A stretch of DNA of 64,000 nucleotides, from assembly GCA_903824675.1 (NCBI GenBank), contig CAIJXV010000017.1, positions 1 to 64,000 of the forward strand, read 5' to 3'. The notes under the pieces were generated by a model. It was not told the DNA's origin. It searched no databases and was given only the letters and a program-made list of their open reading frames with translations. Within the stretch, counting starts at the first letter, position 1; every line of letters begins with the position of its first letter. A program made the translations under genes and the position numbers. The DNA is from an uncultured bacterium (GTDB lineage: Bacteria > Verrucomicrobiota > Kiritimatiellia > CAIKKV01 > CAIJXV01). Positions 12,458-17,075 of this stretch are shown here, one piece after another.

Positions 12458-13102
12458 ATGAGTGAACCTGCCATAGCAGACAATCAAGATGTTAATCGTG
12501 CGCAACGCCGCGCTGGGCGCACTCATAAACGCCTGTTGGATTCCGCCTTGGTTCTTTTCACCGAAAAAGGTATCGATGCCTGTTCGGTCGAAATGATCAC
12601 AGAAAAAGCCGATCTCGGCAAAGGCACATTCTATCGCCACTTCGACGATAAATATGCCATCGTTAATGCGCTTCTCACCCAAGTCCTGTCCCAATTGATT
12701 GAACGCATTGCCAAGAAAACCTCCTCCCCCGTTTCATGGGAAAGTGCGGCGGGACTTATCATTGACGAGCACGCCGCCTTCTTTATTGAAAACCCGACCT
12801 ACCACGGATTCATCCTGCAAACCCGTATCATCGGGCATATCCGCGAAACGCTCGATCAGAAAAACAATTCTCCCGTTGCCGCCTATCTGGCCGTAATCGA
12901 AAAAATCTTCAAACCGATCCTGCCCGATACCCTCTCCCCTCTTCAACTTCGGCGGTTGGTATGTGCCCTCTCCGGTTCCATCATGGGCTTTCTGGCTTTT
13001 GCGGGCATCGGAATGAAACGGGAAGAAGTATCGGCCAGTTTGCCGATTCTTCGCGACGGTTTTCTGAAAGGGGCCGGCGCCTGGGTGAACCACACCCTGT
13101 AA
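12458..13102 (+). CDS. TetR/AcrR-family transcriptional regulator
   Basis: RTHKRLLDSALVLFTEKGIDACSVEMITEKADLGKGTFYRHFDDK. Confidence 0.9.
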   Translation: MSEPAIADNQDVNRAQRRAGRTHKRLLDSALVLFTEKGIDACSVEMITEKADLGKGTFYRHFDDKYAIVNALLTQVLSQLIERIAKKTSSPVSWESAAGLIIDEHAAFFIENPTYHGFILQTRIIGHIRETLDQKNNSPVAAYLAVIEKIFKPILPDTLSPLQLRRLVCALSGSIMGFLAFAGIGMKREEVSASLPILRDGFLKGAGAWVNHTL

Positions 13103-13166
13103 ATAGGACTCGCCGGTCTGATTGGGTTTTAACAAGCGCTCAGCGCAGAAAGGGTAGCGGGCTGAC

Positions 13167-14521: not shown

Positions 14522-15514
14522 ATGCTTTCCATCGGACTGACCTACGATCTCCGCAGTGAATATCTGGCTCTCGGCTTTCGCGAGGACCAGGTCGCTGAAT
14601 TCGATTCCGATGCCACGGTTGATGCGCTCGAAGCCACCCTGCGGGATCTCGGGTATCGCCCGGTTCGCATTGGTCACGCCCGGTCCCTCTGTCGACGGCT
14701 GGTCGAAGGAGAACGCTGGGACTTGGTATTCAATATTGCGGAAGGTATCCATGGGCGCGGGCGCGAAGCCCAAGTCCCCGCCCTCCTTGAACTTTACGAT
14801 ATTCCCTATACCTTTTCCGATACGCTCGTCTGTGCCGCAACCCTTGATAAGGCCGTGACGAAACGCCTTGTCCGGGATGCGGGATTGAATACCGCAGCCT
14901 TTGCCGTTATCCGATCGGCTGACGAAATCAAACGGGTCGCCCTCCGCTATCCCCTTTTCGCAAAACCGATCGCGGAAGGCACCGGAAAGGGCATTGATCG
15001 GAATTCCCGGATTGATTCATCTGCGGCTTTGCAAACGGTCTGCGAAGCTCTCCTGCAACGCCATCATCAGCCGGTCCTCGTTGAGGAATATCTACCCGGC
15101 CGGGAATTCACCGTCGGGATTCTGGGCACCGGTGAAAAGGCCCGGGTGCTCGGCACCATGGAAGTCAACTTTCGACCGCATGCTCAAACGCTGATCTATT
15201 CTTATGAAATGAAGGAAAAATGCGAGGACTTCATCACTTATACCCGCCTCGCCGAGGGTCCCCTGAAGTCAGCCGTCACCGAACTCGCCCTGCAGTCTTA
15301 TCGCGTACTGGAATGTCGCGACGCCGGCCGCATCGATATCCGTATGGATAACGCGGACCGTCCCGCCTTTATCGAGGTCAATCCGCTCGCCGGACTGCAC
15401 CCCCAACACTCCGATCTGCCGATCCTCGCCACCCAGGAAGGCTGGTCCTACCGCGAGTTGATCAAGGCCATTGTCGAAAGCGCTTTGTTGCGTCTGGAAC
15501 CCGTGCATGTCTAA
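14522..15514 (+). CDS. D-Ala-D-Ala ligase-like ATP-grasp enzyme
   Basis: FNIAEGIHGRGREAQVPALLELYDIPYTFSD; PLFAKPIAEGTGKGI; VLVEEYLPGREFTVGILG; FIEVNPLAGLHPQHSDLPI. Confidence 0.88.
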   Translation: MLSIGLTYDLRSEYLALGFREDQVAEFDSDATVDALEATLRDLGYRPVRIGHARSLCRRLVEGERWDLVFNIAEGIHGRGREAQVPALLELYDIPYTFSDTLVCAATLDKAVTKRLVRDAGLNTAAFAVIRSADEIKRVALRYPLFAKPIAEGTGKGIDRNSRIDSSAALQTVCEALLQRHHQPVLVEEYLPGREFTVGILGTGEKARVLGTMEVNFRPHAQTLIYSYEMKEKCEDFITYTRLAEGPLKSAVTELALQSYRVLECRDAGRIDIRMDNADRPAFIEVNPLAGLHPQHSDLPILATQEGWSYRELIKAIVESALLRLEPVHV

Positions 15515-17075
15515 GGCCCTTTCCCTTCCCGTCCTGATCCTCCACAGTCTTCCCTTATCAACTGATGCTGCCGTCTTTGAGGAAAGCGAAATGGGGGTCC
15601 TCACCCAAGTCCGGGCGGTCGAGGCCGATCTGGATCGTCTGCACCGGTCCCACCGAACCTTGGCGGTGCGATCCCTTGTGGAAGCGCTTCAGGCACTCGA
15701 ATCCGCACCGGAACCCATCGTCTTCAATCTGGTCGAAGGTTTTACCGGCGACACCGAAGGTGCGCAACTCATCCCTGCCATCGCCGGCTCATTCGGAAAG
15801 TCCTACACCGGGAACGACACGGCGGCGCTCCTGCGCACTCTGGATAAGTGGGAAACCAACAGCATTCTCGCCCGATCAGGTCTCCCCGTGCCCCCCGCGA
15901 TCCGGGTGCCGCAGGGCGCGACCTGCCCCTCTCGCCTGCCGTTTCCCGGCCCCTATATTGTGAAACCCGCAGCTTCTGATGCCAGTGAAGGCATCGATTT
16001 CGATTCCGTGGCCCCCCGAACCGGTCCGCGCTTGGCGACCGCAGTTCGCCGGGTCCATGCCCAGATCCGACAGGACGCCCTCATCGAAAAGCTCATCGGC
16101 CGCCGTGAGTTAAATGCGGCCCTCATGGAAATCAACGGCAAACCTCAGGTTCTGGCGGTCGCCGAAATTGATTTCACCGCTTTCGCAGCCCATCAGCCTG
16201 CCATCATCGATTATGCCGCCAAATGGCAGAAAAACACCTTCACGTACGATCATACCCCCCGTGTCTATCCCCCCCACATTCCGCGGCGTCTTCTGCGCGA
16301 AGTCGAACAGATCGCTTTGCGCGCATGGGAGGTCATGCGCTGCCGGGATTATGCGCGGGTCGATTTTCGCCTCGATGAAAACCTCAAGCCTTTCATCCTT
16401 GAAGTCAATGCCAATCCGGATATCTCGCCGGACAGCGGTTTTTCATGCTCGGTGCGCGATGCCGGATTCCAACACGTTGATTTTGTCCGTTTCCTCCTCG
16501 CGAATGCCCAGCGGCGTCAACCCCGCCCCAAAAAACGCCCATCCGCAAACAAAACATCCATCCTGGATGCCGGAGCCCCCCAAATTCGACGCCTTGAACC
16601 GTCAGATCGCGATTCAATTCTCCTTTTACTTGAAGCGACCCGCTTTTTTCGGCCCGACGAAATTGAAGTCGCCCGTGAAGTTTTGGACAACTGCTTGGAA
16701 AAAGGACCCGGCGGGCATTACCAATCTTTTGTCGCAACCCTCGATCAGCGCCCCGTCGGATGGGCCTGTATCGGTCCGACGCCTTGCACGTTGGGAACCT
16801 TTGATGTCTATTGGATTGCCGTTGATCCCGCGGCCCAAGGCCGGGGCGTTGGGCGCATCCTGATGCAGGCTGCTGAACAATTGATGCGTGAACGGGATGG
16901 ACGGGTCAGTGTCGTCGAAACTTCTGGTCGCCCGCAATACGAATCGACCCGGGCCTTCTACCGCCGTCTCGATTACCAGGAAGTAGCACAATTGGCTGAT
17001 TTTTATGCGCCGGGTGACGATAAAGTCATTCTTCTCAAAAATATCGGATTATCTTCTGTCTCCGACCGGGTGTAA
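15507..17075 (+). CDS. Ddl-like ATP-grasp ligase fused to C-terminal GNAT N-acetyltransferase
   Basis: FNLVEGFTGDTEGAQLIPAIA, YIVKPAASDASEGIDF, FILEVNANPDISPDSG; GNAT core VYWIAVDPAAQGRGVGRILMQAAEQ; 8-bp overlap with upstream gene. Confidence 0.88.
   Translation: MSKALSLPVLILHSLPLSTDAAVFEESEMGVLTQVRAVEADLDRLHRSHRTLAVRSLVEALQALESAPEPIVFNLVEGFTGDTEGAQLIPAIAGSFGKSYTGNDTAALLRTLDKWETNSILARSGLPVPPAIRVPQGATCPSRLPFPGPYIVKPAASDASEGIDFDSVAPRTGPRLATAVRRVHAQIRQDALIEKLIGRRELNAALMEINGKPQVLAVAEIDFTAFAAHQPAIIDYAAKWQKNTFTYDHTPRVYPPHIPRRLLREVEQIALRAWEVMRCRDYARVDFRLDENLKPFILEVNANPDISPDSGFSCSVRDAGFQHVDFVRFLLANAQRRQPRPKKRPSANKTSILDAGAPQIRRLEPSDRDSILLLLEATRFFRPDEIEVAREVLDNCLEKGPGGHYQSFVATLDQRPVGWACIGPTPCTLGTFDVYWIAVDPAAQGRGVGRILMQAAEQLMRERDGRVSVVETSGRPQYESTRAFYRRLDYQEVAQLADFYAPGDDKVILLKNIGLSSVSDRV

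What the first reader, a model, noticed from the sequence alone, without database searches (positions are those of the whole stretch)
12458..17075. TetR - lysine 2,3-aminomutase - ATP-grasp - ATP-grasp/GNAT cluster: candidate beta-lysine peptide/osmolyte pathway
Seen: four tightly spaced co-directional genes. The KamA homologue has the radical-SAM CxxxCxxC, the PLP-lysine region (TPHGGGK) and Asp residues at the YQCD- and TFVVD-equivalent positions that contact the lysine epsilon-amino group in clostridial lysine 2,3-aminomutase, so L-lysine is the likely substrate. Next are two Ddl-like ATP-grasp ligases overlapping by 8 bp, the second fused to GNAT. Established: lysine 2,3-aminomutase plus a GNAT (AblA/AblB) makes N-epsilon-acetyl-beta-lysine in methanogens, and N-acetylglutaminylglutamine amide synthesis uses an ATP-grasp/acetyltransferase fusion. 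Inference: this operon makes beta-lysine, joins it through its carboxylate to one or more amino acids, and N-acetylates the product, giving a compatible solute, cell-wall cross-linker or small peptide metabolite. No EF-P or EpmA gene is present in the window to suggest EF-P modification.
Basis: partly seen in the sequence, partly recalled or inferred. Interest (0 to 1): 0.85.

Follow-up and report, generated by a model that had tools for sequence, protein, structure and literature searches.

The report
Beta-lysine ligation and acetylation operon
A four-gene operon, kept together in many mostly uncultured bacteria, probably turns lysine into beta-lysine, links it to other amino acids and adds an acetyl group; its product is unknown and its ligases are mislabelled in databases as cell-wall enzymes.

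Summary
In detail: TetR, a lysine 2,3-aminomutase (KamA) and two Ddl-fold ATP-grasp ligases, the second fused to a GNAT, lie co-directionally at 12458-17075 with an 8-bp ligase overlap. It is not local coincidence. Of 52 relatives' loci with at least 4 kb upstream, 43 have ligase 1, 38 KamA and 36 both, across many phyla. The parts are reordered or split in some genomes, and linked KamAs fall into three separate clades (AU p = 1.5e-40). All intact cluster KamAs keep the lysine-binding aspartates. Neither ligase is the housekeeping Ddl: the genome has a true ddl beside murB and ftsQ, and Ddl pocket residues are replaced (L282 to Asp in ligase 1, to Gly in ligase 2; Y216 to Glu or Trp). AblB is absent.

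One correction: the genome does carry efp next to an EpmA gene, and this KamA is its only KamA-family gene, so it may also feed EF-P. Eleven cluster-bearing genomes have LysS but no detected EpmA, so EF-P cannot explain the cluster. Best reading: an undescribed pathway to an N-acetylated beta-lysine amide or peptide. Product, bond order and physiological role (osmolyte or other) are untested.

The parts
12458..13102 (+). TetR-family regulator, first gene of the putative operon
   Evidence: PF00440 E 1.8e-13; TetR on the same strand in 20 of 52 loci with >=4 kb upstream
13167..14507 (+). Lysine 2,3-aminomutase homologue (KamA)
   Evidence: TIGR00238 315.9 bits (cut-off 199.2), TIGR03820 499.6 bits (below its cut-off 525.4); 2a5h E 1.3e-137; Cys125/129/132, R134, D293, D330, K337 kept; only KamA-family gene in the genome
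14522..15514 (+). ATP-grasp ligase 1, Ddl fold, with Ddl pocket residues replaced (L282 to Asp, Y216 to Glu)
   Evidence: PF07478 103 bits; model pLDDT 91.7, best PDB fold matches are Ddl/Van ligases; catalytic K144/E180/K215/R255/D257/E270/N272 kept in 36/36, position 282 Asp in 36/36
15507..17075 (+). Bifunctional ATP-grasp ligase 2 / GNAT acetyltransferase
   Evidence: PF07478 and PF00583; fused in 67, separate in 24, no GNAT in 3 of the copies examined
15531..16520 (+). ATP-grasp domain of ligase 2 (Y216 to Trp, L282 to Gly)
   Evidence: Trp and Gly in 94/94 rows, catalytic residues kept; Foldseek best match Ddl 6u1f
16581..17042 (+). GNAT domain
   Evidence: PF00583 E 1.6e-13; profile match to PDB 2r7h, a standalone GNAT, E 3.6e-46; no AblB model match
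12270..12307 (.). A+T-rich stretch with imperfect inverted repeats upstream of tetR; possible regulatory region (weak)
   Evidence: the repeat finder; chance not excluded
17101..17118 (+). Terminator-like hairpin after the last gene (weak)
   Evidence: 7 sites found against 5.5 +/- 2.6 in shuffles, so not above chance

Best explanation
The operon is a dedicated small-molecule pathway. KamA (radical SAM, PLP) converts L-lysine to beta-lysine. Ligase 1, a Ddl-fold ATP-grasp enzyme with an acidic pocket, uses beta-lysine as substrate and forms an amide bond with another amino acid by way of an acyl phosphate. Ligase 2 adds a further residue or joins the product to a second partner. The tethered GNAT then N-acetylates a free amine from acetyl-CoA. 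In some lineages an extra GNAT-deacetylase (HDAC fold) fusion tunes or reverses acetylation. TetR senses a ligand and controls the operon. In this genome KamA may also supply EpmA for EF-P. Shown by sequence: the enzyme families, conserved catalytic residues, non-Ddl pockets, and repeated co-occurrence. Inferred: substrates, order of steps, acetylation site, role.
For: Conserved cluster in 80 loci of many phyla, including reordered (L094-L098) and split (G144, G165, G161) forms in which the parts persist. In 12 further genomes searched, most of which lacked KamA at the cluster locus, KamA was found somewhere in 11. Three separate KamA clades are linked to the module; one clade is rejected, AU p 1.5e-40. 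Lysine-binding Asp pair and R134 kept in every intact cluster KamA. KamA and ligase 1 stay paired where the cluster is split (L101, L103, L108), so ligase 1 most likely uses KamA's product. Ligase 1 has Asp at Ddl 282 in 36/36 and Glu at 216 in 32/36. True ddl in murB-ddl-ftsQ. No AblB. Cluster present without detected EpmA in 11 genomes where LysS was found. HDAC-fold (PF00850) plus GNAT gene inserted in the cluster in several lineages.
Against: No chemistry: the product is not known, and ATP-grasp substrates cannot be read reliably from sequence. Some loci lack ligase 1 (L044, L057, L063, L099), so both ligases may not be needed together. One genome (G219, L078) has ligases and GNAT but no KamA hit, though it is a MAG. 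In own-order genomes KamA may be there for EF-P. TetR is linked in only a minority of loci.
Confidence: 0.6

Rival explanations
1. EF-P modification: KamA makes beta-lysine for EpmA, and the ligases and GNAT belong to an unrelated process that happens to be adjacent.
For: efp and epmA adjacent at C61 in the same genome, epmA 293.5 bits over cut-off 286.9, EF-P has the PGKG lysine; KamA is the only KamA-family gene.
Against: 11 genomes with the cluster and a detected LysS have no detected EpmA; in five of them (G231, G236, G237, G238, G243) there is a single KamA. Linkage of KamA to the ligases recurs in three KamA clades. KamA is closer to LAM than to EpmB models.
Confidence: 0.12
2. Compatible-solute pathway in the narrow sense (a special case of the best explanation): the product is a soluble N-acetylated beta-lysine dipeptide or amide accumulated under salt, analogous to N-epsilon-acetyl-beta-lysine or N-acetylglutaminylglutamine amide.
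For: Same logic of parts: LAM as in AblA, GNAT fused to an ATP-grasp as in NAGGN synthetase (TIGR03103 gives a marginal partial hit, E 3.1e-4); no exporter, carrier protein or wall gene is recurrent in the cluster.
Against: No osmotic regulator or transporter recurs in the cluster; no expression or metabolite data; the habitat of the hosts was not analysed.
Confidence: 0.3
3. Protein or cell-wall modification: an ATP-grasp ligase attaches beta-lysine (then acetylated) to a protein, or makes a peptidoglycan cross-link.
For: Ddl fold; ATP-grasp enzymes such as RimK and TTL modify proteins (a weak TTL Pfam match).
Against: No recurrent mur, fem or target-protein gene near the cluster; housekeeping ddl is elsewhere.
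Confidence: 0.12
4. Lysine catabolism: KamA starts lysine degradation and the other genes are detoxification or salvage.
For: LAM starts clostridial lysine fermentation (established knowledge).
Against: No further gene family recurs widely in the loci besides the parts described; ATP-consuming ligases point to synthesis.
Confidence: 0.05

Closest known systems
AblA/AblB N-epsilon-acetyl-beta-lysine pathway
   Same: LAM-type aminomutase plus a GNAT, likely beta-lysine as intermediate
   Different: The GNAT is not AblB (no TIGR03827 match in the genome; in a relative LAM is beside true AblB, L144, 349 bits); two ATP-grasp ligases are added
N-acetylglutaminylglutamine amide synthetase (NAGGN, TIGR03103)
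   Same: ATP-grasp fused to GNAT making an N-acetylated peptide-like solute
   Different: Only a marginal partial model match (19.4 bits against a cut-off of 569); here the ATP-grasp is of the Ddl type; aminomutase present
EpmB/EpmA beta-lysylation of EF-P
   Same: A KamA-family enzyme makes beta-lysine that is then ligated; efp-epmA exist in this genome
   Different: Here the linked ligases are ATP-grasp; many cluster genomes have no detected EpmA; KamA is LAM-like, not EpmB-like
D-Ala-D-Ala ligase (Ddl) and Van ligases
   Same: Fold and catalytic residues; databases name these proteins Ddl
   Different: All Ddl model cut-offs missed; pocket residues 216 and 282 replaced invariantly or nearly so
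ATP-grasp plus GNAT peptide-ligase operons predicted by comparative genomics (PMC4431377)
   Same: Linked peptide ligases thought to act in turn, with GNAT capping
   Different: Those are R2K-clade ATP-grasp enzymes without an aminomutase (no mention of aminomutase in that paper)

Membership tests
Lysine 2,3-aminomutase (KamA/AblA) | CxxxCxxC cluster and PLP lysine | tested here: met
   all intact cluster KamAs
Lysine 2,3-aminomutase (KamA/AblA) | Two Asp binding the epsilon-amine and Arg134 binding the carboxylate | tested here: met
Lysine 2,3-aminomutase (KamA/AblA) | TIGR03820 equivalog cut-off 525.4 bits | tested here: not met
   499.6 bits; still its best model; general KamA model TIGR00238 is met
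Lysine 2,3-aminomutase (KamA/AblA) | Activity on L-lysine and stereochemistry of the product | not testable with these tools
   needs enzyme assay
EpmB | TIGR03821 cut-off 369.3 bits | tested here: not met
   250.5 bits
D-Ala-D-Ala ligase | Ddl model cut-offs (TIGR01205 245.65; NF002378 243) | tested here: not met
   131 and 161 bits for ligase 1; 86 and 101 for ligase 2; own Ddl 291 and 338
D-Ala-D-Ala ligase | Tyr216 and Leu282 (E. coli DdlB numbering) | tested here: not met
   Glu and Asp in ligase 1, Trp and Gly in ligase 2
D-Ala-D-Ala ligase | ATP-grasp catalytic residues | tested here: met
   36/36 for ligase 1; ligase 2 94/94 except E270 92/94
AblB beta-lysine acetyltransferase | TIGR03827 match | tested here: not met
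   no match in the own genome; fusion not matched
NAGGN synthetase | TIGR03103 cut-off 569 bits | tested here: not met
   19.4 bits over a partial stretch
N-acetylated beta-lysyl peptide pathway (proposed) | Product detected | not testable with these tools
   needs LC-MS

The most novel reading that the evidence does not exclude
A widespread, undescribed class of beta-amino-acid natural products or solutes, N-acetylated beta-lysyl amides or peptides, made without NRPS by a pair of Ddl-derived ATP-grasp ligases, and assembled with lysine aminomutases of three separate clades. A single ligase-1 query already returns about 8,000 database clusters at E <= 1e-60 (the candidate ceiling of the search); those with a source name are mostly called D-alanine-D-alanine ligase.
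Probability: 0.4. Interest if true: 0.8.

Novelty: new variant of a known kind. Interest (0 to 1): 0.62.

Why it matters
If right, thousands of proteins called D-alanine-D-alanine ligase are peptide ligases for a beta-amino acid, and a metabolite class common in planctomycetes and other uncultured bacteria has been missed. It also gives a directly testable prediction: express two to four genes and look for a beta-lysine conjugate. It raises a second question, whether one aminomutase can feed both this pathway and EF-P.

Tried and rejected
Canonical Ddl role: rejected, a separate ddl sits in a murB-ddl-ftsQ cluster and pocket residues differ. AblB: no match. EF-P-only role: does not fit 11 genomes with LysS but no detected EpmA. 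Plasmid search for a characterised host: only distant single ATP-grasp genes on rhizobial plasmids; in the two regions opened no KamA or GNAT is annotated beside them. Literature: no open-access paper found that joins aminomutase and ATP-grasp in this sense; the word searches before may have missed '2,3-aminomutase' because of the comma. Iyer et al. 2009 (amidoligases; recalled from memory) is not held, so prior mention there cannot be excluded. Promoter and terminator scans were at chance level. An early residue count for ligase 1 had gappy rows and was redone on a clean alignment.

Full report
What is there. and one search confirm four co-directional genes: tetR 12458-13102, kamA 13167-14507, ligase 1 14522-15514 and ligase 2-GNAT 15507-17075. 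The ligases overlap by 8 bp. Pfam and NCBIfam assign the families. KamA aligns over its conserved core with the solved clostridial lysine 2,3-aminomutase 2a5h. R134 and both lysine-binding aspartates (D293, D330) are kept in the window and in every intact relative in the cluster (L020 is frameshifted and L046 is truncated or misframed at a contig end).

Is it more than chance? A scan of species genomes with the fusion alignment gave 80 loci. A profile-based reading of each locus, counted, shows a GNAT downstream of ligase 2 in 79 of 80. Of 52 loci with at least 4 kb of upstream sequence, 43 have ligase 1, 38 KamA and 36 both. Hosts span Planctomycetota, Lentisphaerota, Kiritimatiellota, Verrucomicrobiota, Myxococcota, Chloroflexi, Nitrospirae, Acidobacteria and Proteobacteria by record title. 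Within the window's own phylum the fusion is patchy: 18 of 216 genomes at E <= 1e-60.

Rearranged and split forms. Five genomes carry ligase 1-ligase 2-GNAT-KamA (L094-L098). Three genomes keep KamA-ligase 1 on one contig and ligase 2-GNAT on another (L101/L100, L103/L102, L108/L107). Some lack ligase 1 at the locus (L044, L057, L063, L099). In 12 genomes searched, most of which lacked KamA at the cluster locus, KamA was found somewhere in 11; the exception is G219. A tree of 88 KamA sequences puts cluster-linked KamAs in three supported clades, one of them nested among aminomutases whose neighbourhoods show no ATP-grasp gene matching my profiles; a single clade is rejected (p 1.5e-40). The same kind of module has therefore been coupled to lysine-type aminomutases more than once, or its KamA has been replaced by another of the same type. 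Either way selection kept the function.

What the ligases are not. Fold search of two confident models (pLDDT 91.7 and 86.1) returns Ddl and Van ligases. Catalytic residues are kept, but the DdlB positions 216 and 282, which lie in the substrate pocket (from general knowledge of Ddl structures), are changed: ligase 1 has Glu (32/36) and Asp (36/36); ligase 2 has Trp and Gly in 94/94. The rearranged loci L094-L098 were not in the 36-sequence set, and one inspected (L098) differs at 216. Curated Ddl cut-offs are missed by both and passed by the genome's own Ddl, which lies in a murB-ddl-ftsQ cluster (murB and ftsQ recognised by reading their translations). An acidic residue in the pocket would suit a basic substrate such as beta-lysine; that is an inference.

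The genome has both, adjacent, at C61, and KamA of the window is its only KamA-family gene. KamA may therefore feed EpmA here. But of 23 other cluster genomes, 14 have no EpmA-sized hit; in 11 of these LysS was found by the same search, which shows the search worked. In five of the 11 KamA is single. EF-P cannot be the reason the cluster exists.

Most likely mechanism. Shown: families, residues, co-occurrence. Inferred: L-lysine to beta-lysine (KamA); amide bond to a second amino acid (ligase 1, the partner that stays with KamA when the cluster is split); a further ligation (ligase 2); N-acetylation (GNAT). Several lineages add a gene fusing a GNAT and an HDAC-fold deacetylase between KamA and the ligases, which fits reversible acetylation of a small amine. 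A literature search found no description of this combination; one possibly relevant older survey was not held.

Limits. Everything rests on sequence. Most genomes are MAGs, so single absences are weak. Loci were found with the fusion protein, so their counts are conditional on it. Counts depend on my own profiles and thresholds.

Noticed in passing
L033, L046, L047, L055, L057, L063, L084, L017, L058: A GNAT fused to an HDAC-fold deacetylase (PF00850) lies in the cluster, between KamA and the ligases where KamA is present, in several phyla; no NCBIfam model matches the two tested.
   Followed up: partly
G000:C61:33224-34724 (L088): efp directly followed by epmA in the window's genome.
   Followed up: yes
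G000:C105:91522-92085 (L004): A third non-Ddl ATP-grasp ligase in the same genome, similar to ligase 2 but without a GNAT, between an SDR-like gene and a sulfatase-like gene.
   Followed up: partly
Rhizobium/Sinorhizobium plasmids, e.g. NC_000914.2:207279-208289 (L114): Lone ATP-grasp genes distantly similar to both ligases on rhizobial plasmids, without KamA or GNAT annotated nearby in the two regions opened.
   Followed up: partly
L144:5809-7955: A relative in the same phylum has LAM next to a true AblB (349 bits), a classic acetyl-beta-lysine pair, useful as a control.
   Followed up: yes
G000:C7:6217-8268 (L006, L007): Two weak Dala_Dala_lig_C matches inside one 1159-aa open frame; identity not examined.
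   Followed up: no
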